Source: Cytophagales bacterium (GTDB lineage: Bacteria > Bacteroidota > Bacteroidia > Cytophagales > Microscillaceae). Taken from it: a DNA stretch of 46,749 nt. The notes under the pieces are model-generated. The model searched no databases, was not told the origin of the DNA, and worked only from the letters and a program-made list of their open reading frames with translations. The stretch lies in assembly GCA_013298075.1 (NCBI GenBank), contig JAAFJG010000036.1:1-46749 (forward strand). The letters run 5' to 3'. A program made the position numbers and the translations under genes. Below, piece after piece: positions 240 to 39,311 of the stretch (positions are counted from its first letter, which is position 1; every line of letters begins with the position of its first letter).

Positions 240-3194
240 TTATTGATTTTCAATGAGTTGTATTTCTTCTTTTGTGAGATTATATAATTCATAGACCAAA
301 ATATCGATTTCTTTTTCGAGATTTTGGATTTTTTCTGTAATCGTATCTATTTTTTCTTTTTCTTGTTTAAAAAAATCTTTCCATTCTGTTTTTTTATTCA
401 AAGACATTTCGATTTTTGATTTTGTGAGTTCAGAAGCAAAATTTACCCAATCTAAATCAAACCAATTTTCTATTTTTTTGGTGAATTTTTTATGTTTGGC
501 GTATTCTTCTAATAATTCTAAAAAATTATTTTGCATTTTTTTAATATCAGGTTGCAAAGATAATATTTCATTTACTTTATCAATAAAAATTTGTTGATCA
601 TTTTTTGGAATAATCATAAAAGGTAATTGTTTAATATTGATAGTTTTGACTTGTGCAAAAGCCCTTCCTTCTTCTTCTGTAAGAATTGAATACAAATAAT
701 TTAACAATTTACTATTAAAAATAGCCAATAAAAAATACAAACTAATTTCATTTTTATATTCATCTTTCGGAATAATTGTATGTAAGGTTTTATCAGTTTG
801 ATAACCATTTTCATCTATCATTCCTACTAATTTACTCGAAGTTTGGCGATAAATAAGTTTAGGTTTAGTTTCTAAAATATCAATACGATATCTAAAAACA
901 TCATTTTCATTCAAAAAAGAAGTATAATTGTGTCTTAAATAGTTTTCAGGTTTATTAATTTTATAGCGTCCAATTTGTGTTCCTTTCAAGTAAGGAATAT
1001 CGTTAAAATGTTCTTTTTTTCCGTGATATAAAACTCGACTTCCAATAGAATTTTGCCTAACTTTTTTACTTCCTACTGACCAATAATTATAACCAATATC
1101 TTTGACCAAAAAATAATGATTCATTTTAGGAATATTGGCTAATTTTGCAAAAATTCCATTCAATGCAATAAAATTATTGGTATGTGCTTTTACCCAACCT
1201 TTTGTTTTTTTGAAATCACTTTTCATTATCCAACCTAATTCCATTTCTTTTTTTTCCAAAATAGTAATGGCAGAATAAACATTGGCATCTGTAAAATGTA
1301 ACACATTTGTAAAATCTACAATTTGTTTTATTTGATATTTTATTAAACTATTTCTTAATTTTTCAAAATATAATCCTTTAATAAAACTATTTGAAGTAAT
1401 TAAACCCAATAATCCATTGTTTTTTAAAAGATGAATACATTGCATAAAAAATGCTACATATAAATCATTATTTCTTTTAAACTCAGGAAATTTATTTTCT
1501 AAATATGTTTTTTTTGGCTTATCATAAACCAAAACATAAGGTGGATTTCCGACAATTAAACTAAATCCATCACCCATTTTTGAAAATTCTTTTGTCCAAT
1601 CAAAAGCCTTTTCATCAATATTTTTATCCGCAATCAATGAATTGCCAATTTTAATATTTTGGCTTAAATCATTTAATTTTCGTTTGCCTTGTGCGATACG
1701 TAGCCACAAAGAAAGTTTTGTGATAGATATACTTTCTAAGTTTATATCTACTCCAAAAATATTATTCTCTAAAATTTGATGATAAATATTTGAAACGATT
1801 TTTTCGTTGGATAAATTTGATAATAATTCGTCTAATTTTTGATGTTCTTTGATAAAAAACGTCAAGACTTGATTTAAAAATGCTCCCGAACCACACGCAG
1901 GATCCAAGACTGTAACGCTCAAAAGCCAATTTCTGTAGATATTTATTTTGTCAATCGTGATATTTTCAAAAGAAAGTTCTGTTTTTTTATTTTCACACAT
2001 TTTTCCTAAGGTTTCCTCAATCATATAATCGGTGATATAAATAGGCGTATAAAAAATACCATCTTCTTTTCTTTTCGGTTGTTCTTTGGACTTTTTCCCT
2101 GCCGCTAAATCTTTTGCTTTTTGTGATAGTTCCGCTTTTTTTTTGTCTAATTCTGCCAAACTAAATTCAAAAATATGACCTAAAACATTCACATCAATAT
2201 CAGATTCGAAATCATAACGACTAATATATTCCGATTGATTTTTCAGAATATTATCACCGATTTTGAAATTATCTAAAATTTCATCAAATTCGAATAAACC
2301 GCCATTAAACGCATAAATATCATATTTTTCACTCGAAAAACCATTGTTGATAAAGTCAAAATGTTTTTTAAAAACTTCATAAAGATTTTTTTTCTCTCCA
2401 ATTTGTTTATATAATTCCCATTCTTGGATAATTATTTTGATATAATTGGCGGGCAACAGCCCTTTATCTTTCGCAAAAGACATAAAAATAATTCTATCTA
2501 ATAATTTTTGCGTTTTCTGAAAAATCAATAATTCATCAATATTTTTGTTATTTTCTTTGATATTTAAAAACAATGCCTCTTTAAAACCTTGATAATCATT
2601 ATAAAATTCCAAAGTTAATTTTTCTTCTCTTTCTGTTGATTCTTTTTTTAGTTTAATAGGTTTATCTTGCAAAATACTTTTACAATGCAATACAGAATAA
2701 AGTACTGAAAAACGCTCAAAAGACAAATCAAATAAATCAAAATCTTCATATTCTACATTATTTTCCAAATAAAAACGAAGTTTTTTGAAATTAGAAGTGA
2801 TGATATATTTGCAATCAATATGACTATTTTTATACTCAAAAGCCTGTTTTTGAATGTCTTCTAATAAAATGGTTTTCATTGATTTGAGTTCGATTACGCC
2901 AATTACTTTGCCATTTTTAAGAATTGCACCATCAGATTTTTTCGCAGAATTTTGCGTTTTTTGTTCTGAAATTAAGTTAAAATCTTTTTGGGGATTGAGC
3001 GTATAACCTAAAATATTGACAAACAAATCCTGTAAAAAACCTTCTTGATATTGTTCTTCTTTTGCATTTTTAATATTTTCTTGAATATTTTTATTGGCAA
3101 AATGAGCTTGAAATTTATCAAAAGCATTTTTTATTTCGTCTTGATTTTGTAGTGCTACAAATTCTTTTAGAACTGTTTTTTGAAATATTTGCAT
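240..3194 (-). CDS. Type IIG-like restriction-modification protein (fused nuclease and N6-adenine methyltransferase)
   Basis: 984 residues. An N-terminal PD-(D/E)xK-type nuclease region is suggested by Asp88 followed by IELK (Glu102, Lys104) in a context like the HsdR N-terminal domain. The central methyltransferase carries the SAM-binding motif DPACGSGAFL at residue 431 and the catalytic NPPY at residues 550-553, typical of Eco57I-like N6-adenine methylases. The remaining 400 or so residues would hold the target recognition region and end in a coiled-coil-like tail. Such single-chain enzymes both cut and methylate, so no separate methylase gene is required. The length agrees with the family (about 900-1100). 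No adjacent specificity subunit is seen. The next gene on its 3' side begins with the same 74 residues. A perfect inverted repeat lies just upstream of the start. Confidence 0.87.
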   Translation of the reverse strand: MQIFQKTVLKEFVALQNQDEIKNAFDKFQAHFANKNIQENIKNAKEEQYQEGFLQDLFVNILGYTLNPQKDFNLISEQKTQNSAKKSDGAILKNGKVIGVIELKSMKTILLEDIQKQAFEYKNSHIDCKYIITSNFKKLRFYLENNVEYEDFDLFDLSFERFSVLYSVLHCKSILQDKPIKLKKESTEREEKLTLEFYNDYQGFKEALFLNIKENNKNIDELLIFQKTQKLLDRIIFMSFAKDKGLLPANYIKIIIQEWELYKQIGEKKNLYEVFKKHFDFINNGFSSEKYDIYAFNGGLFEFDEILDNFKIGDNILKNQSEYISRYDFESDIDVNVLGHIFEFSLAELDKKKAELSQKAKDLAAGKKSKEQPKRKEDGIFYTPIYITDYMIEETLGKMCENKKTELSFENITIDKINIYRNWLLSVTVLDPACGSGAFLNQVLTFFIKEHQKLDELLSNLSNEKIVSNIYHQILENNIFGVDINLESISITKLSLWLRIAQGKRKLNDLSQNIKIGNSLIADKNIDEKAFDWTKEFSKMGDGFSLIVGNPPYVLVYDKPKKTYLENKFPEFKRNNDLYVAFFMQCIHLLKNNGLLGLITSNSFIKGLYFEKLRNSLIKYQIKQIVDFTNVLHFTDANVYSAITILEKKEMELGWIMKSDFKKTKGWVKAHTNNFIALNGIFAKLANIPKMNHYFLVKDIGYNYWSVGSKKVRQNSIGSRVLYHGKKEHFNDIPYLKGTQIGRYKINKPENYLRHNYTSFLNENDVFRYRIDILETKPKLIYRQTSSKLVGMIDENGYQTDKTLHTIIPKDEYKNEISLYFLLAIFNSKLLNYLYSILTEEEGRAFAQVKTINIKQLPFMIIPKNDQQIFIDKVNEILSLQPDIKKMQNNFLELLEEYAKHKKFTKKIENWFDLDWVNFASELTKSKIEMSLNKKTEWKDFFKQEKEKIDTITEKIQNLEKEIDILVYELYNLTKEEIQLIENQ
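2972..3194. repeat. Direct repeat shared with bases 1-223
   Basis: Bases 1-223 and 2972-3194 align at a constant offset of 2971 with two mismatches. Similarity continues weakly for about 17 bases past the start codon, into the leader. The window edge cuts the left copy, so the true repeat is at least 223 bases and probably longer. This is large enough for homologous recombination, which would delete one gene or create a hybrid. Confidence 0.95.
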
Positions 3195-18009: not shown

Positions 18010-20238
18010 ATGAATTTTTCGTCTCCTGAAATATTTGATATTTCACTAAAGGTTATTGGCTATTTAGTCAAAGAACTTAATTTACCCGTTATTTCTGATA
18101 TTTCTAATATCCAAACTTGGGCTACACAAGTGGCTCAAAAAAGTGATATTGAGAAATATATTGCGTATTATAACGATGATATTATATTTGTTACCCAAGA
18201 AATAGAGTCAAAATATATTCTTGCGTCTATTATTTTAGTTTGTTTGGCAGAAAAAGAAGAAACTTATCAACTTTATAGAAATGAAGTTATCACTAATATT
18301 TTGCATGCAGATTATCACATACACGAAGGACTTGTGCATTGGTGGGCGCATAATACGATTGAAGAAGGCAAAGAAGAAGAATTTTCTTTGGTTTATGAAA
18401 TGCGTGATTTGTTTCTGAGCAGATATTTAACGCGTATCAATTATACGTATCAAGCCCCTTCAAATCCTTATGCGTATTACGATTATTTTGAAATTAGTTG
18501 TCTCGAACAAGATGCCAAACTTTGTGGTAGTCTAACGATTCATAACCCACAACAAAATACATCGAGTACTTATTATTTCGATATTTCTTGGGAGCAATGG
18601 AATGAAATTGCTAAAAGAACCAAAAATATTGGGATTCCTCATACCGTTAATCGTTATGATTCGACAAATATGGAATATATAGCCAATCATATTTTAGAAA
18701 TGTATAATGCCAAATATGAGTTATTTTATAAAGATAATTGGAATGAAGCTAATTCACTATTGCCTAACTTTAAACTTATCATCAAAGATTTACTTTTAGA
18801 AATAGTGAATGTAGATATTGATGAATTAGCAGAAAAATTTTTTCCAAAACAAGCACCGATTATGTCCGAAATGCAAAAAATAAATTGTAATAGTGCCGCT
18901 TGGGATAGCGAATTTAGATTTTTGAGCGAAGTAATTCAAACGCGTTTTGATTTACATTTAGGAGTCGCAAGTCGCAAAAGAAGTGTGTATGAAGTGAGTT
19001 TGCCCAAAACAGATATATACAGCAGTTTGGGGATTTTGATTAGAAAATATGATTGGAAATTTGAAGAAAGAGTTATTTTGGCTTTGGCGATGGCAGTGCA
19101 TTTGCGTCCACAAGTGTTAGATGATTTTTTTCAAAGAAATAGCAAATACGAGCGAACTTATACAGAAGTAGGCGGTTTGAAAGGCAAGTTTCATTCTGGT
19201 TTTTTGCCAACTTTAGAAACGGCTTGCTATCTTTTGGCAGGCGTAGATATTAGTAAACGTATTCAAATACTGAATTATTATTTTGGTGAAAATAGTAATT
19301 TTGGTAGAGATAATATCTTGAGATTAGAAACAAAAGAATCTACCGAACCTGCGTATGCGGGACAATTAGTTGTAACGCAAGAATATTTGGAATATTTGAC
19401 CACAGGCAAAAGTTTCAAACCTGATTATCATCATAATTTCCCTGCTGAACTATTGACCACAAAACTTGAATGGAAAGACTTATTTTTAGAACAAGAAACG
19501 ATTGATGAAATTCAAAACATAGAAACTTGGCTGACGTATCAACATAAAATTATGGAGGAATTAGAACTCAGAAAACATCTAAAATTAGGATATAGGGCTT
19601 TATTTCATGGGACTTCGGGGACAGGTAAAACTTTGACTGCCACGCTTTTAGGTAAAAATTTAGGTTTAGATGTGTATAGAGTAGATTTATCGATGATAAG
19701 TTCGAAATGGATAGGGGAGACCACCAAAAATCTTGCTCGATTATTTGATATGGCGGAAAACAAAAATTGGATTTTATTTTTTGATGAAGCAGAAAGTCTT
19801 TTTGGAAAACGGAGCCAAAATGTAGAACGTGCTACTGATGCGTATTACAATCAAGAAGTAGGTTATATGTTGCAACGCATCGAAAATTATGATGGATTAG
19901 TGATATTAGCCACCAATCTTTTGGATAATATTGATACGGCTTTTATGCGTAGATTTCAGTCGTTGGTTTATTTTCCTGTGCCAAGTCCTTCGCAACAAAT
20001 GGCGTTATGGCGAAATATTTTTGCCAAAGGTTTGCCGCTTTCTAAAAATGTAAGTCTTAAAATTTTATCCGAAAAATATGTATTGACTGCCTCGAATATT
20101 ACCAATGTTTTAGGATATGCAACTATCAAAACTTTGCAAAATAAAACCAAATCTATCACGATGCAAACGCTCACAAATGCGATAGAAAAAGAATTGAAAA
20201 AAGCAAATATGAGAGAAAGTGTAGGATTTAAAAAGTGA
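18010..20238 (+). CDS. AAA+ ATPase of the contractile-injection-system type
   Basis: 742 residues. The C-terminal third is an AAA+ domain: Walker A GTSGTGKT at residues 534-541, VYRVDLSMISSKWIGETTKNLARLFD, Walker B ILFFDEAE at 588-595, sensor 1 ILATNLLDN and arginine finger region AFMRRFQSL. The wording KNWILFFDEAESLFGKR and YNQEVGYMLQRIENYDG matches the ATPase (Afp15/PVC15 type) found in extracellular contractile injection systems and in similar stand-alone proteins. The long N-terminal part (1-450) includes ALAMAVHLRPQVLDDFFQRN and FHSGFLPTLETACYLLAG, which recur in those Bacteroidota proteins. No sheath, tube or baseplate gene lies in the window, so it is either an orphan or serves a distant cluster. 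It is cytoplasmic. Confidence 0.75.
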   Translation: MNFSSPEIFDISLKVIGYLVKELNLPVISDISNIQTWATQVAQKSDIEKYIAYYNDDIIFVTQEIESKYILASIILVCLAEKEETYQLYRNEVITNILHADYHIHEGLVHWWAHNTIEEGKEEEFSLVYEMRDLFLSRYLTRINYTYQAPSNPYAYYDYFEISCLEQDAKLCGSLTIHNPQQNTSSTYYFDISWEQWNEIAKRTKNIGIPHTVNRYDSTNMEYIANHILEMYNAKYELFYKDNWNEANSLLPNFKLIIKDLLLEIVNVDIDELAEKFFPKQAPIMSEMQKINCNSAAWDSEFRFLSEVIQTRFDLHLGVASRKRSVYEVSLPKTDIYSSLGILIRKYDWKFEERVILALAMAVHLRPQVLDDFFQRNSKYERTYTEVGGLKGKFHSGFLPTLETACYLLAGVDISKRIQILNYYFGENSNFGRDNILRLETKESTEPAYAGQLVVTQEYLEYLTTGKSFKPDYHHNFPAELLTTKLEWKDLFLEQETIDEIQNIETWLTYQHKIMEELELRKHLKLGYRALFHGTSGTGKTLTATLLGKNLGLDVYRVDLSMISSKWIGETTKNLARLFDMAENKNWILFFDEAESLFGKRSQNVERATDAYYNQEVGYMLQRIENYDGLVILATNLLDNIDTAFMRRFQSLVYFPVPSPSQQMALWRNIFAKGLPLSKNVSLKILSEKYVLTASNITNVLGYATIKTLQNKTKSITMQTLTNAIEKELKKANMRESVGFKK

Positions 20239-20620: not shown

Positions 20621-20662
20621 CATATCTAAAACGTAGGCGTTAACGCCTACGTTTTAGATATG
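20621..20662. repeat. Perfect 42-base palindrome
   Basis: Each half begins CATATCTAAAACGTAGGCGT. There is no spacer, so it can form a cruciform or a long hairpin in RNA. It is richer in GC than its surroundings and lies 120 bases upstream of the MORN-like gene. Confidence 0.9.
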
Positions 20663-21588: not shown

Positions 21589-21784
21589 CTCCAACTGTTT
21601 TAAGTATTAAGCGAAACGTTACTTAAACCCAAATAAAATTTTAGGATATGAAATAAAATAATAGAAAAAAAATATGGCACAATCAAAATTTTTAGAGAAT
21701 CAAAAGCTTGAAAAAAAGATATGCATAACCTGTTAATAGAACTCGAAAAAACAGGTATAAAATAAACATAAAAACTAATTTATT
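21589..21784. other. Intergenic stretch with short reading-frame remnants
   Basis: Short frames at 21674 (MAQSKFLENQ...) and 21721 (MHNLLIELEKTGIK) follow one another in different phases and could be the remains of one small gene broken by a frameshift. TTAAGTATTAAGCGAAACG with TTACTTAAACC near 21600-21630 recurs in similar form near 26895-26925. Confidence 0.35.
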
Positions 21785-22864
21785 ATGAAATTTGAAAGTA
21801 TTAGCATCAAAAATTTTAGAGGATTGAAAAACCTCGAAATAGAAGACTTTAAGAATACGAATTTATTGGTAGGAAAAAATAATTCAGGAAAAAGTTCTGT
21901 ATTAGAAAGCATTTTTTTATGTTCAGATATTTCTAATACAGGAATAGCTTTGTCTGTAAATCAACTTAGAGGACTTTTACACAATAATAGTGAAGATTTT
22001 AAGTTCATTTTTAACGAACTCGATTATAAAAATTGCCCAACTATCGAAGGTAAATTTGACATAAACGAACAAATTCGACATCTTTGTATCAAACCGAACC
22101 AAAGTAACTCGAAAGAAAAGGTGAGTAAAATAGGTTTAGAAAGTATCATAAGCACCAATATAGATAACGATTTTGACAAGATAAATGGATTGAATTTTAA
22201 TTTTAGTATCAAAGAAAAACATCAACTTCAAAAAGAATATACATCTAAATTAATCATTGAAGAAGGAAGTATAATAACAGAAATAACCAAAAATTACAAA
22301 GAAAAAATTAAGGTAATATTTGTTAACTCCCATTTAGGAGGAGTTATTCAAGGGATTTATAAATATCTCGATGCCATTATTACCGCCAAACAAAAAAATG
22401 ATATTTTAGAAATACTTAAAAAAATAGAACCTAAAATAATAGATATTTCTTTGGGAGCAAACAACATTATATATTGCGATATAGGGGCAGAAAGATTGTT
22501 GCCTATCAATTTGATGGGTGATGGTATTAAACAAATTTTAGGTTTATTGGTTAGCATTTATTTTGTAAAAGATGGCGTTTTTTTGATAGATGAAATCGAT
22601 AATGGATTGCATTATAGTACGTTAAAAACACTTTGGAAAGGTATTTTTTTATTTTCTGATAAATATAAAGTGCAGATTTTTGCTACCACACACTCAGACG
22701 AATGTGTGCGTGCTTATGCTGAAGTATATCAAGAAACCTATCCCGAAGAAGATAATATGAGGCTGTATCGAATACAAAAAAATGCAGATGATACACATAA
22801 AGCTGTCAAAATGAAACCCGAAAATATATATAATTTATTAAAAATGAATTGGGAATATAGATAA
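21785..22864 (+). CDS. ABC/SMC-like AAA ATPase (AAA_15/AAA_21 type), first gene of a two-gene pair
   Basis: 359 residues. N-terminus FESISIKNFRGLKNLEIEDF is the usual start of RecF/OLD-like ATPases. Walker A is GKNNSGKS at residues 30-37, the signature-like LMGDGIKQILGLLVS lies near 245, Walker B is VFLIDEID with Asp269-Glu270, and the switch histidine is in FATTHSDEC. The insert between Walker A and B is short, so no long SMC coiled coil is present. Unlike OLD or GajA, it has no nuclease domain of its own. The TOPRIM-like protein is encoded 4 bases downstream, so the two are translated together. The pairing resembles the anti-phage PARIS system (AriA with AriB), as an inference. Confidence 0.85.
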   Translation: MKFESISIKNFRGLKNLEIEDFKNTNLLVGKNNSGKSSVLESIFLCSDISNTGIALSVNQLRGLLHNNSEDFKFIFNELDYKNCPTIEGKFDINEQIRHLCIKPNQSNSKEKVSKIGLESIISTNIDNDFDKINGLNFNFSIKEKHQLQKEYTSKLIIEEGSIITEITKNYKEKIKVIFVNSHLGGVIQGIYKYLDAIITAKQKNDILEILKKIEPKIIDISLGANNIIYCDIGAERLLPINLMGDGIKQILGLLVSIYFVKDGVFLIDEIDNGLHYSTLKTLWKGIFLFSDKYKVQIFATTHSDECVRAYAEVYQETYPEEDNMRLYRIQKNADDTHKAVKMKPENIYNLLKMNWEYR

Positions 22865-22868
22865 AATT

Positions 22869-23486
22869 ATGGCGGACAAAATCATTATTCAACATAAAAA
22901 TATTATATGTGTGGAAGGAAAAGATGAAGTAGCATTTCTTGAGGCATTTTTAGAATATTGTGGTATTCAAAATGTTCAAATTATTAACTTTCAAGGAAAA
23001 GATAATTTCAAAAAGAGTACAGAAAATTTACTATTTTTACCAAACTTTGAAATCGTGGAAAAAATTATCTTGATTCGAGATGCTGATTTTGGAGAAAATG
23101 CCTCTGAAAATGCTTTCAAAAGCTTACAAAATGCACTCTCAAAAGCTGGTTTTCCTTGTCCAATTAAACAAAAACAATGGACAGAAAACGCAACAAACAA
23201 GATACAAACTGCTATTTATATTATGCCTAATGAAGGGGCAGAAGGAATGTTAGAAAATCTTTGTTTAGAAAGTATCAAACCTGAACAAATGAAATGTATT
23301 GAGATGTATTTAGCGTGTATGCCCGAAAAACCTGACAACAAAAATATCCCAAAAGCAAAAATACAAGTGTTTTTAGCCGCCAAAAAAGAACCTATCTATT
23401 CTTTGGGAACTGCTGCGAAAAGAAAATTTTGGGACTTCGAAAATAATATTTTTCAAGACCTTAAAAATTTATTAAAAAACCTATAA
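22869..23486 (+). CDS. DUF3226 (TOPRIM-like) protein, second gene of the ATPase pair
   Basis: 205 residues. Motifs of a TOPRIM fold are visible: Glu16 in IICVEGKDEVAFLEAFLE and the Asp71-x-Asp73 pair in IILIRDADFGEN. The later part (AIYIMPNEGAEGMLENLCLESI and KIQVFLAAKKEPIYSLGTAAKRKFWDF) matches what I recall of DUF3226. TOPRIM domains use these acidic residues to bind magnesium for nuclease or related chemistry. It starts 4 bases after the ATPase stop codon and so forms an obligate operon with it. In PARIS the second gene is a DUF4435 TOPRIM nuclease; here a different TOPRIM family holds that place. Function is inferred from arrangement only. Confidence 0.8.
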   Translation: MADKIIIQHKNIICVEGKDEVAFLEAFLEYCGIQNVQIINFQGKDNFKKSTENLLFLPNFEIVEKIILIRDADFGENASENAFKSLQNALSKAGFPCPIKQKQWTENATNKIQTAIYIMPNEGAEGMLENLCLESIKPEQMKCIEMYLACMPEKPDNKNIPKAKIQVFLAAKKEPIYSLGTAAKRKFWDFENNIFQDLKNLLKNL

Positions 23487-26726: not shown

Positions 26727-27098
26727 TTTTAACTTTAGATTTTATGAACTTTTGCAAAGTAACTCAGAATAAATGATATATCCAAATAAAATCTAATAAA
26801 TCAATAAAAATAATTTAAAAAAATATGAAAAATCTAAGAAATCATTGTACTAATCTAAGAATTTTAACAAAAATTCAATTAAATTAAAAACTATTTTAAG
26901 TATTAGATAAAGGATTACTTAAACCATAAAATTATTTGATTGACTTAGTTTCGTATCTAAAACAAGGTTTTAAATAGCAAATTTGGATTTTTTTTTGAAT
27001 AATAGTATTTTTTTTCAAAAAAATTTTGATAAAAAGAAAATAAATCACTACCTTTGCAAAAATTAAATAAATTTTAAATCATAATCTTTTTGTTTCTT
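26727..27098. other. Divergent intergenic region upstream of bamD
   Basis: About 370 AT-rich bases between divergent genes. It contains the bamD promoter (27025-27056) and, near 26895-26925, TTTTAAGTATTAG followed by TTACTTAAACC, also seen near 21600. No gene was found. Confidence 0.5.
27025..27056 (+). promoter_or_regulatory. Promoter of bamD-rpoZ
   Basis: TTTG at 27025-27028, a 20-base spacer and TACCTTTG at 27049-27056 match the Bacteroidota consensus closely. Confidence 0.75.
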
Positions 27099-37919: not shown

Positions 37920-39311
37920 ATGAAATTTTTTATCATCTTTTTATTTTTTGCTACTATTTTTATTAATATTTATGCTCAAAACAACAAACCAGAAAATTGC
38001 ACTTTGCGTTTGCAAATGAATAATGGTAATAGACTTCAAAATTTTGTATTGCGTGTAGGAGCGCAAGAATACATTACAGACAAGGAAGGAGTGGTTATGT
38101 TGCCCAATTGTAAACGTGAAAGTCTTATTTTTGTAAGAGATAATATTGTTTTGGTTGGATATACAGGCGACCCTATTACCAAAAAAATAAGAGGAGGAGT
38201 CAATTTAATTCTTACTTTACCCAAAGGAAGTAGTTTGCCTCCTAACAGAAATGAACTCATGGCAATCCAAAGGGCAAAAGAGGAAACAGAAAAAGTAAAT
38301 AAAATGTCTACTGATATTAGTAATTTAGGGCAAGATTTGGATAGTATCAAAAAAGCAAAAGAACATGTAGAAAAAGCACAAAAAATAGAGCAAGAAGCAC
38401 ATTTGGTTACACAAAAAAAAGCAAAAGATGACCAGATAAAAGCAGAAGAAGATAAAAAAAGAGCAAATGAAAGAGCTCAATTTTTAATGGGAATTATTTT
38501 ATTTATTACGATTGCTATCACTATTTGTGGCTATATGATGTATTTGGTTTGGCATAAAAATTCATTATTAATCAAACAAAAAAAGGAAATTGAGGGCAAA
38601 AATAATCGCATCGAAGAATTGCTTTTAAATATATTACCCAAAGAAGTAGCCGACGAACTTTCTATCAAAGGAGTTACCGAAACTCGCTATTATGACTTTA
38701 CCACCGTGCTTTTTGCGGATATAAAAGGTTTTTCTGCCTTAGCACAAAGAGTAACTCCACAAGTCTTGATTAGTGAATTAGATGCTACTTTTGGTAAATT
38801 TGATGATATTATCAAAAAATATCATATAGAAAGAATTAAAACTATTGGCGATTGTTATATGTGCGCGGGTGGCGTACCCAATCGTAATCGTAGTAATCCT
38901 ATTGATGTCGTTTTGGCTGCTTTAGAAATTCAAAAATGGATGATAGACGAAAAAGCAAGACGTAATAATGATTTTTGGCAAGTAAGATTAGGATTGCATA
39001 CTGGAGATTTGGTGGCGGGCGTAGTGGGAAAAACTAAATTTGCGTTTGATATTTGGGGAAATACCGTTAATTTGGCTTCACGTATGGAAAGTGTGGGCGA
39101 AATTGGTAAAGTAAATATTTCTGATACTACTTATCAACAAATAAAAGATTTTTTTGAATGTACTTCAAGAGGAAAAATTCACGTAAAAAATATTGGAGAA
39201 GTAGATACTTATTTTATTGATAGAATAAAAATTCAACTTTCTGCAGATAGCGAAGGACTTTTGCCTAATAAAGATTTTTGGGCTATCAAAAAAGAAAAAT
39301 TTGGGGAATAA
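37920..39311 (+). CDS. Membrane-bound class III adenylate cyclase
   Basis: 463 residues. A signal peptide (MKFFIIFLFFATIFINIYAQ) precedes a beta-rich domain outside the membrane (residues 22-115), then a charged coiled coil (about 120-185), one membrane helix at 188-211 and a cyclase domain from about 255. Metal-binding Asp267 (FADIKGFS) and Asp311 (TIGDCYM) are present. Lys307 and Asp377 (KFAFDIWGN) are the residues that select ATP, and the transition-state residues Asn384 and Arg388 follow (NTVNLASR). So it should make cAMP in response to a signal sensed outside. Cyclases with this plan are numerous in Cytophagia. It has its own promoter and terminator. Confidence 0.92.
   Translation: MKFFIIFLFFATIFINIYAQNNKPENCTLRLQMNNGNRLQNFVLRVGAQEYITDKEGVVMLPNCKRESLIFVRDNIVLVGYTGDPITKKIRGGVNLILTLPKGSSLPPNRNELMAIQRAKEETEKVNKMSTDISNLGQDLDSIKKAKEHVEKAQKIEQEAHLVTQKKAKDDQIKAEEDKKRANERAQFLMGIILFITIAITICGYMMYLVWHKNSLLIKQKKEIEGKNNRIEELLLNILPKEVADELSIKGVTETRYYDFTTVLFADIKGFSALAQRVTPQVLISELDATFGKFDDIIKKYHIERIKTIGDCYMCAGGVPNRNRSNPIDVVLAALEIQKWMIDEKARRNNDFWQVRLGLHTGDLVAGVVGKTKFAFDIWGNTVNLASRMESVGEIGKVNISDTTYQQIKDFFECTSRGKIHVKNIGEVDTYFIDRIKIQLSADSEGLLPNKDFWAIKKEKFGE

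What the first reader, a model, noticed from the sequence alone, without database searches (positions are those of the whole stretch)
21785..23486. Two-gene ATPase/DUF3226 system resembling PARIS
An ABC-type ATPase without its own nuclease is followed 4 bases later by a TOPRIM-like protein with Glu16 and Asp71-x-Asp73. PARIS pairs a similar ATPase (AriA) with a DUF4435 TOPRIM nuclease (AriB). Here DUF3226 takes the place of DUF4435. The pair is flanked by repeats, palindromes and gene remnants, as defence islands often are. This is my best candidate for an undescribed immune system.
Basis: inference. Interest (0 to 1): 0.65.

Follow-up and report, generated by a model that had tools for sequence, protein, structure and literature searches.

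The report
Split OLD-type ATPase–nuclease pair (PDC-M38)
A bacterial genome carries a two-gene ATPase plus nuclease cassette of a kind that is already listed as a candidate anti-virus system but seems untested; distant relatives ride on tiny plasmids of gut bacteria, which makes the kind easy to test.

Summary
In detail: an AAA_15/AAA_21 ATPase (21785-22864) is followed after 4 bases by a DUF3226 protein (22869-23486) with Glu16 and Asp71-x-Asp73. It is not undescribed: both genes hit the PADLOC candidate system PDC-M38. No held paper names PDC-M38 or DUF3226. The DUF3226 protein is a confident TOPRIM model (pLDDT 96), nearer to the DUF3226-like orphan 2p62 (Z 12.5) and OLD nucleases (Z 9.3-10.2) than to PARIS AriB (Z 7.4). 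Six positions resemble OLD's two-metal catalytic set. The pair is usually adjacent, co-diverges, is patchy across phyla, and decays. A distant branch is carried by about 4 kb ColE1-type plasmids (142 plasmid records match; 2 opened). A few copies sit in restriction or BREX operons, but enrichment near defence genes is not established, and the flanking repeats here are genome-wide. Best reading: a split OLD nuclease acting as an abortive-infection module, PARIS-like in logic, not PARIS by membership. Trigger, substrate and function are untested.

The parts
21785..22864 (+). ABC/AAA_15-type ATPase, 359 aa, stand-alone (PDC-M38A-like); Walker A at codons 30-37 (about 21872-21895), Walker B D269-E270 (about 22589-22594), H303 (about 22691-22693)
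   Evidence: Pfam AAA_15/AAA_21; PADLOC PDC-M38A 3.6e-56, AbiLi 1.3e-52, AriA 5.1e-27; G30, N33, G35, K36, D269, E270, H303 invariant in 36 homologues; AF2 pLDDT 89; Foldseek top rows retron Eco8, GajA, PtuA, Rad50
22869..23486 (+). DUF3226 TOPRIM nuclease-like protein, 205 aa (PDC-M38B-like)
   Evidence: Pfam DUF3226 3.3e-33, OLD-like_TOPRIM 1.8e-4; PADLOC PDC-M38B 3.4e-17; AF2 pLDDT 96; VIA Z 12.5 to 2p62, 10.2 to 6nk8, 9.3 to 6p74, 7.4 to AriB 8ux9_A
22914..22928 (+). codons of Glu16 (TOPRIM glutamate, OLD E400-like) to Glu20 (OLD E404-like)
   Evidence: E16 45 of 45; position 20 acidic in 42 of 45; OLD residues from PMC6755086
23079..23087 (+). codons of Asp71-Ala72-Asp73 (TOPRIM DxD, OLD D455/D457-like)
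   Evidence: D71 45 of 45; position 73 D or E in 44 of 45
23253..23255 (+). codon of Glu129, in the helix after the last TOPRIM strand (OLD E508-like, inferred)
   Evidence: 45 of 45 in the chosen set, but not among the nearly invariant columns of the more diverse 16; helix 128-133 in the model; equivalence not measured in space
23352..23354 (+). codon of Lys162 in helix 157-170 (OLD K562-like, inferred)
   Evidence: 43 of 44; 90% or more of the diverse 16; equivalence not measured in space

Best explanation
A split OLD-type ATPase-TOPRIM module working by abortive infection. The ATPase forms an oligomeric sensor that holds the small TOPRIM nuclease (DUF3226) inactive. A sign of infection changes the ATPase and the nuclease is released or switched on. 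With two metal ions held by E16, E20, D71, D73 and E129, and helped by K162, it cuts a nucleic acid (host tRNA as AriB does, or DNA as OLD/GajA do), so growth stops before phage is made. Shown here: the pair, its conservation and co-divergence, the TOPRIM fold, the conserved catalytic-type residues, and the accessory, partly mobile distribution. Inferred: complex formation, restraint by the ATPase, nuclease activity, trigger, substrate, anti-phage effect.
For: Both genes match one candidate defence system, PDC-M38, as do both genes of two enterobacterial plasmid pairs. ATPase upstream in 29 of 34 loci of named genomes, one of them interrupted, and in 22 of the 23 DUF3226 ORFs that passed the script's filter in order relatives, the window's two included. 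Co-divergence r 0.87. Catalytic-type set in the order of class 2 OLD (PMC6755086). Fold nearest to 2p62 and OLD; AriB, GajA and retron Eco2 are further down. Patchy: 20 of 146 order relatives and 18 of 392 genomes of the phylum, own genome included in both. Phyla mix at supported nodes. Carried by small plasmids. Four loci beside or inside R-M or BREX genes. Published precedent: AriA holds AriB until triggered (PMC11455837); two stand-alone AAA ATPases neutralised separate TOPRIM_OLD toxins (PMC10440598).
Against: No defence assay was found for this family. In the window the pair stands among mostly housekeeping genes; the nearest R-M gene seen is 18.6 kb away. R-M enrichment is not significant in the independent test (2 of 34 loci against 1 of 60 control regions, Fisher p 0.30). 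No relative in 50,697 phage records by two queries, none confirmed in IMG/VR by the patterns used, and none in plasmids with the window protein itself. Four deltaproteobacterial loci (L044, L048, L050, L069) keep one neighbourhood, judged by ORF sizes, as a resident gene would. One DUF3226 gene (L007) lacks an ATPase in the 1.5 kb upstream and lacks the TOPRIM glutamate end. For the E. coli OLD YbjD the Toprim domain was dispensable for the anti-phage phenotype (PMC13261556, abstract), and class 5 OLD (Cran1) serves the cell cycle (PMC12796447). The AAA pair screened against phages in PMC10440598, which is not a TOPRIM pair, gave no protection.
Confidence: 0.6

Rival explanations
1. An addiction (toxin-antitoxin) cassette: the DUF3226 nuclease is a toxin and the ATPase its antitoxin, kept because loss kills the cell or stabilises small plasmids, with no immune role.
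For: Carried by about 4 kb plasmids with almost nothing else annotated; stand-alone AAA ATPases neutralise TOPRIM_OLD toxins (PMC10440598).
Against: For PARIS, deleting either gene was non-toxic and abolished defence (PMC9122126). Chromosomal copies decay (L010/L027, L022, L035), which addiction should resist. TA and Abi functions also overlap.
Confidence: 0.17
2. A DNA-directed nuclease against foreign DNA (phage or plasmid), OLD/Gabija/Wadjet-like, that degrades the invader rather than stopping growth.
For: Fold nearer to DNA-cutting OLD (Z 9.3-10.2) than to the tRNase AriB (Z 7.4); the ATPase ties with Rad50 and SMC heads.
Against: The TOPRIM fold does not fix the substrate: OLD cuts DNA, AriB cuts tRNA. 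Relatives are themselves carried by plasmids.
Confidence: 0.15
3. A housekeeping DNA-repair or cell-cycle ATPase-nuclease, like the archaeal OLD Cran1.
For: Apparently constant neighbourhood in four deltaproteobacterial loci; occurs in archaea (Lokiarchaeon L060; Methanocaldococcus jannaschii control); Cran1 precedent.
Against: 126 of 146 order relatives have no match and only 2 of 15 family genomes (G000, G011) have a copy above 100 bits; decayed copies; plasmid carriage.
Confidence: 0.06

Closest known systems
PDC-M38 (PADLOC-DB 2.0.0 candidate, PDC-M38A + PDC-M38B)
   Same: Both genes hit it over nearly their whole length, in adjacent genes.
   Different: P0002 scores below the best-fitting member tested (3.4e-17 against 2.1e-60 for L004's protein). 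PDC-M38 is a catalogue entry; no assay was found.
OLD family nucleases (class 1, class 2/GajA, class 3/retron Eco8)
   Same: ABC ATPase plus TOPRIM with Glu, Gly and DxD, and a later Glu and Lys; nearest fold with a known activity.
   Different: One polypeptide in OLD classes 1-3; here two genes.
PARIS (AriA + AriB; proposed OLD class 4)
   Same: Two-gene ATPase + TOPRIM; AriA profile 5.1e-27; AriB chain Z 7.4.
   Different: DUF3226, not DUF4435; 205 aa against the 306-residue AriB chain of 8ux9; ATPase 359 against 464 aa; PDC-M38A and AbiLi models fit the ATPase better than AriA.
AbiL (AbiLi + AbiLii)
   Same: ATPase hits AbiLi at 1.3e-52; plasmid-borne two-gene ATPase + TOPRIM_OLD (PMC10440598).
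   Different: The DUF3226 protein shows no AbiLii hit at E up to 1; whether the library holds an AbiLii model was not seen.
2p62, PH0156 of Pyrococcus horikoshii
   Same: Best structural match, Z 12.5, rmsd 3.3, 184 aligned; HMM match 5.5e-4, but over residues 11-32 only.
   Different: Entry titled hypothetical protein; no function known to me.

Membership tests
PDC-M38 (PADLOC candidate) | ATPase matching a PDC-M38A model | tested here: met
   PDLC04611 3.6e-56, residues 3-359 on 2-383 of 383
PDC-M38 (PADLOC candidate) | Adjacent partner matching a PDC-M38B model | tested here: met
   PDLC04623 3.4e-17, residues 10-204 on 3-216 of 219; 4 bases apart
PDC-M38 (PADLOC candidate) | Anti-phage activity | not testable with these tools
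   no assay found in the paper library
PARIS | ATPase with AAA_15 or AAA_21 over the score used for PARIS | tested here: met
   86.2 and 85.2 bits against 32 and 27 (PMC9122126)
PARIS | Partner with DUF4435 (PF14491) | tested here: not met
   only DUF3226 and OLD-like_TOPRIM at E up to 1
PARIS | Triggered by anti-restriction proteins such as Ocr; tRNA cleavage | not testable with these tools
   needs bench work
OLD family | TOPRIM with Glu, Gly after strand 2, and DxD | tested here: met
   E16, G43, D71 45 of 45; position 73 acidic in 44 of 45
OLD family | Second-metal Glu and catalytic Lys of the helical domain | tested here: inconclusive
   E129 45 of 45 and K162 43 of 44 lie in helices after the TOPRIM core, but E129 is not conserved in the more diverse set, the profile alignment to OLD covers only residues 6-86, and coordinates could not be superposed
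OLD family | ATPase and TOPRIM in one polypeptide (classes 1-3) | tested here: not met
   two ORFs; split as in proposed class 4
AbiL | AbiLi-type ATPase | tested here: met
   PDLC02336 1.3e-52
AbiL | AbiLii (RloB-like) partner | tested here: inconclusive
   no such hit for P0002 at E up to 1 in PADLOC or Pfam; presence of an AbiLii model in PADLOC was not verified

The most novel reading that the evidence does not exclude
DUF3226 pairs are a further split OLD class that acts as a second line behind restriction-modification, like PARIS but with a different trigger, and in enterobacteria it is packaged as a near-minimal self-replicating immunity unit: a roughly 4 kb ColE1-type plasmid that carries little besides the pair.
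Probability: 0.25. Interest if true: 0.62.

Novelty: new member of a known kind. Interest (0 to 1): 0.42.

Why it matters
An ABC ATPase with a TOPRIM nuclease recurs in Gabija, PARIS, AbiL and retrons. DUF3226 pairs are a widespread branch of that theme with an inferred catalytic set and a solved orphan fold, but no function in the papers searched. Natural plasmids of 3.8-4.7 kb that carry such a pair make the question cheap to test in laboratory E. coli.

Tried and rejected
Core gene: rejected; most relatives lack the family.

Defence island in this window: not supported. Of 40 window proteins scanned against PADLOC, 56 families matched and 25 are shown: type IIG R-M and other methylase models (by Pfam the Eco57I-type protein at 240-3194), IetA/TRIP13 (18010-20238), and PycC, whose likely source is the cyclase at 37920-39311.

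Empty-site test: not possible. In the stretches fetched from the two same-genus genomes, of 26 window proteins only the DUF5686 neighbour matched.

Neighbourhood, first try: PADLOC models matched at E up to 1e-15 were 132 + 172 for 211 near genes of 41 loci and 25 + 81 for 211 control genes. These count models, not genes, and the control holds Septu and cyclase loci, so I do not use them as proof. Dropped before the count: loci L042, L048, L050 and L069 as near-copies, and proteins over 1400 aa; control region L133 supplied no gene, so the control is 19 regions. Second try with R-M queries: hits in 7 of 41 and 2 of 34 near loci against 1 of 60 control regions. Four of the 7 are the loci that supplied queries; Fisher p is 0.22 without them, 0.30 for the independent 34, 0.042 with all. 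Control region L214 is a quarter N.

Filter: of 27 loci given, 4 (L007, L010, L019, L022) had no ORF that passed; L020 and L021, of OLD length, were not given.

Led nowhere: P0002 against PDB sequences, plasmids and phages; viral contigs (64 stretches matched, none confirmed); a fixed-spacing repeat pattern (0 places). VIA on the ATPase does not discriminate: among the 50 rows shown SMC, Rad50, PtuA, AriA and GajA lie at Z 18.8-20.7.

Full report
WHAT IS THERE. The ATPase is 359 aa with Walker A GKNNSGKS, Walker B LIDEIDNGLH and the histidine of THS; G30, N33, G35, K36, D269, E270 and H303 are invariant in 36 homologues. Pfam shows no nuclease domain in it. Four bases later comes a 205-aa DUF3226 protein (3.3e-33) with an OLD-like_TOPRIM hit just under its cut-off (1.8e-4).

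ALREADY CATALOGUED. In PADLOC-DB 2.0.0 the ATPase's best hit is PDC-M38A (3.6e-56), then AbiLi (1.3e-52), with AriA at 5.1e-27. The DUF3226 protein's best hit is PDC-M38B (3.4e-17); its only other family at E up to 1 is mad4 at 0.019. So the pair is a member of a listed candidate and 'undescribed' is too strong. No paper held names DUF3226 or PDC-M38; one search lists papers that use PADLOC, which I did not open. bioRxiv is not held. That the PDC names come from a preprint of the PADLOC group is recalled, from no call.

THE PAIR IS A UNIT. In order relatives, 22 of 23 DUF3226 ORFs that passed a motif filter have an ATPase just upstream, the window's two included; the exception is one half of a broken gene. 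Four of 27 loci given had no ORF that passed; one of them, L007, matches the profile from position 15 on and has no Walker A in the 1.5 kb upstream. In 34 loci of named genomes, 29 have an ATPase ORF upstream (28, of which L065 is interrupted; L039), two have an upstream ORF cut by the contig start, and three lie close to a contig start with none seen. Distances among ATPases and among partners correlate at r 0.87 over 36 pairs, 0 of 2000 shuffles as high.

FOLD AND ACTIVE SITE. AlphaFold2 gives the DUF3226 protein pLDDT 96 and pTM 0.91. VIA-align: 2p62 Z 12.5 (rmsd 3.3, 184 aligned), class 2 OLD C-terminal region 6nk8 Z 10.2 (4.4, 160), T. scotoductus OLD 6p74 Z 9.3 (3.6, 133), T7 primase 1nui Z 8.6 (2.8, 111), AriB 8ux9 Z 7.4 (4.3, 156), GajA 8j4t Z 7.3 (4.4, 155), retron Eco2 9lm3 Z 6.6 (4.8, 164). 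Z under 8 can mean only a common arrangement, and unrelated succinyl-CoA synthetases (Z 7.7) rank above AriB, so the AriB, GajA and Eco2 rows are weak by themselves. Foldseek counts two matches at E up to 0.001, retron Eco2 and OLD. Over a chosen set of 45 homologues six columns never vary: E16, G17, G43, D71, G126, E129. K162 is kept in 43 of 44, position 73 is acidic in 44 of 45, position 20 in 42 of 45. In a more diverse set of 16, E16, D71 and D73 are invariant and G126 and K162 nearly so, but E129 is not among them, so the invariance of E129 depends partly on the choice of sequences. Class 2 OLD uses E400, E404, D455, D457, T506, E508 and K562 (PMC6755086, passages read). Order and spacing fit E16, E20, D71, D73, E129 and K162; no counterpart of T506 is claimed. 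Residues 6-86 are supported by profile alignment to OLD proteins. The E129 and K162 equivalence is inference from order and secondary structure.

THE ATPASE. Its model (pLDDT 89; residues 110-127 under 50) is an ABC head. Among the 50 VIA rows shown, SMC, Rad50, PtuA, AriA and GajA tie at Z 18.8-20.7, so structure does not say which defence ATPase is closest.

DISTRIBUTION. PF11536 is in 20 of 146 order relatives and 18 of 392 genomes of the phylum; both sets hold the own genome and they overlap. In the family a copy above 100 bits is in 2 of 15 genomes, the window's own and G011. Of the two same-genus genomes (91 and 79% complete), one has no match and the other only a weak match within a 678-aa frame of OLD length. 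Related loci occur in Bacteroidota, Aminicenantes, Acidobacteria, Desulfobacterota, Gammaproteobacteria, Cyanobacteria, Lentisphaerae, Chloroflexota, a Lokiarchaeon, Spirochaetes and others. A tree of 34 needs 19 changes of phylum label (least 16, shuffled mean 25.1), so phyla cluster somewhat; starred branches force at least two changes for Desulfobacterota, Cyanobacteria, Ignavibacteria and Spirochaetes, and a starred node (97/88) mixes Desulfobacterota, Cyanobacteria and Gammaproteobacteria. I set the labels by hand from record titles: three 'Deltaproteobacteria' rows went with Desulfobacterota, though treekit prints Myxococcota for them. Paralogy could explain part. Broken copies: G008 (two frames), a fragment in G011:C269, and G274, where one ORF joins the ATPase start to the DUF3226 end. 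The own genome has a second ATPase followed by an 82-aa DUF3226 piece on C67.

SMALL PLASMIDS. With a gammaproteobacterial relative as query, 142 of 72,556 plasmid records match, 136 of them Klebsiella; identity is 24.5-29.1% in the rows listed, and 28 of the 40 rows of the spread listing are 4.1-4.2 kb records. A few are large plasmids (76 to 332 kb). I opened two records. A 4,167-base Klebsiella plasmid has four annotated genes: DUF3226, ATPase, Rop and an HTH protein. A Salmonella plasmid of 3,793 bases has ATPase, DUF3226, MobA and Rop. The gene table is incomplete by its own description. In E. coli 9 of 5,426 genomes match, in records of 3.8-4.7 kb, all 13 places on plasmids and none on chromosomes. 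The four proteins of the two opened plasmids hit PDC-M38A/B, the ATPases scoring AbiLi higher; E16, D71, G126, E129 and K162 are kept. They are distant from the window's pair (26% for the nuclease, 28-31% for the ATPase), and the window protein itself finds no plasmid.

NEIGHBOURHOOD. Some copies sit in restriction or BREX operons. L116: an hsdM-type gene, a gene in the hsdS position (not scanned singly), a full-length OLD, the pair, one ORF, an hsdR-type gene; the nuclease of this pair matches DUF3226 (46.8 bits) but no PDC-M38B model at 1e-5. L066: the pair, then an hsdR-type gene within about 10 bases. L053: the pair, then a DNA methylase and a type III restriction enzyme. L070: PglX, the pair, a SNF2-type helicase. 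But the controlled test is not significant outside the loci that supplied the queries, and other copies sit among ordinary genes, for example beside a sucC-like gene in L113 (recognised from its first residues, from memory). In the window the left flank includes CTP synthase, an OmpA protein and a CcmB protein, the right flank DUF5686, YfiO, M48, IPP transferase and PdxA. A type IIG R-M protein lies at 240-3194, 18.6 kb away.

HOW IT MOST LIKELY WORKS. In PARIS the ATPase ring sequesters the nuclease until an anti-restriction protein releases it, and the nuclease cuts tRNA (PMC11455837, passages; PMC12409363, passages and section 24). Two stand-alone AAA ATPases neutralise separate TOPRIM_OLD toxins, and AbiL has that layout (PMC10440598, passages). 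PARIS has been proposed as OLD class 4, split in two genes (PMC10568477, passages). By anatomy the DUF3226 pair is another split of the OLD plan, so the same logic is the best guess: the ATPase restrains, a trigger frees, a two-metal nuclease cuts. Nearness to OLD leaves DNA and RNA both open as substrate. Against it stands that in the E. coli OLD YbjD the Toprim domain was dispensable for the anti-phage phenotype (PMC13261556, abstract), and that an archaeal OLD serves the cell cycle (PMC12796447, passages).

VERDICT. Added here: the OLD-like residue set, the conserved unit, the patchy distribution, and the tiny plasmids that make the kind testable.

Noticed in passing
window 20621-20662: Perfect 42-base palindrome; its 34-base core occurs at 10 places in the genome with up to 3 mismatches, 6 of them exact, so it is a dispersed element and not a mark of this locus.
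   Followed up: partly
window 21590-21642: Dispersed intergenic repeat; the 195-base query around it has 42 matches in the own genome (itself included, capped) and 3, 2 and 3 in three relatives. A 73% copy lies at 26889-26937.
   Followed up: partly
window 21674-21765: Short reading frame that seems broken by a frameshift, a possible small-gene remnant before the ATPase (by eye).
   Followed up: no
window 240-3194: Type IIG (Eco57I/MmeI-like) restriction-modification protein on the minus strand.
   Followed up: partly
window 18010-20238: 742-aa protein with an IetA/TRIP13-like AAA domain; near full-length relatives at 62% in two other genera of the family. Partner genes not examined.
   Followed up: partly
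L116 3556-14555: Type I R-M operon holding two ATPase-TOPRIM modules side by side: a full-length OLD and a split DUF3226 pair.
   Followed up: partly
L035 1387-1752: ORF joining the start of the ATPase to the end of DUF3226, a deletion remnant; the next gene resembles the one after the intact pair in L034 (by eye).
   Followed up: no
L009 / L038: The closest relative of the window pair (a Microscillaceae genome) has both proteins shorter at the C-terminus, perhaps early decay.
   Followed up: no
L007 1501-2064: DUF3226 gene without the TOPRIM glutamate end and without an ATPase in the 1.5 kb upstream, perhaps a decayed or repurposed copy.
   Followed up: no
G000:C67:59279-59485 (L002): Second ATPase in the own genome followed by an 82-aa DUF3226 piece.
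   Followed up: no
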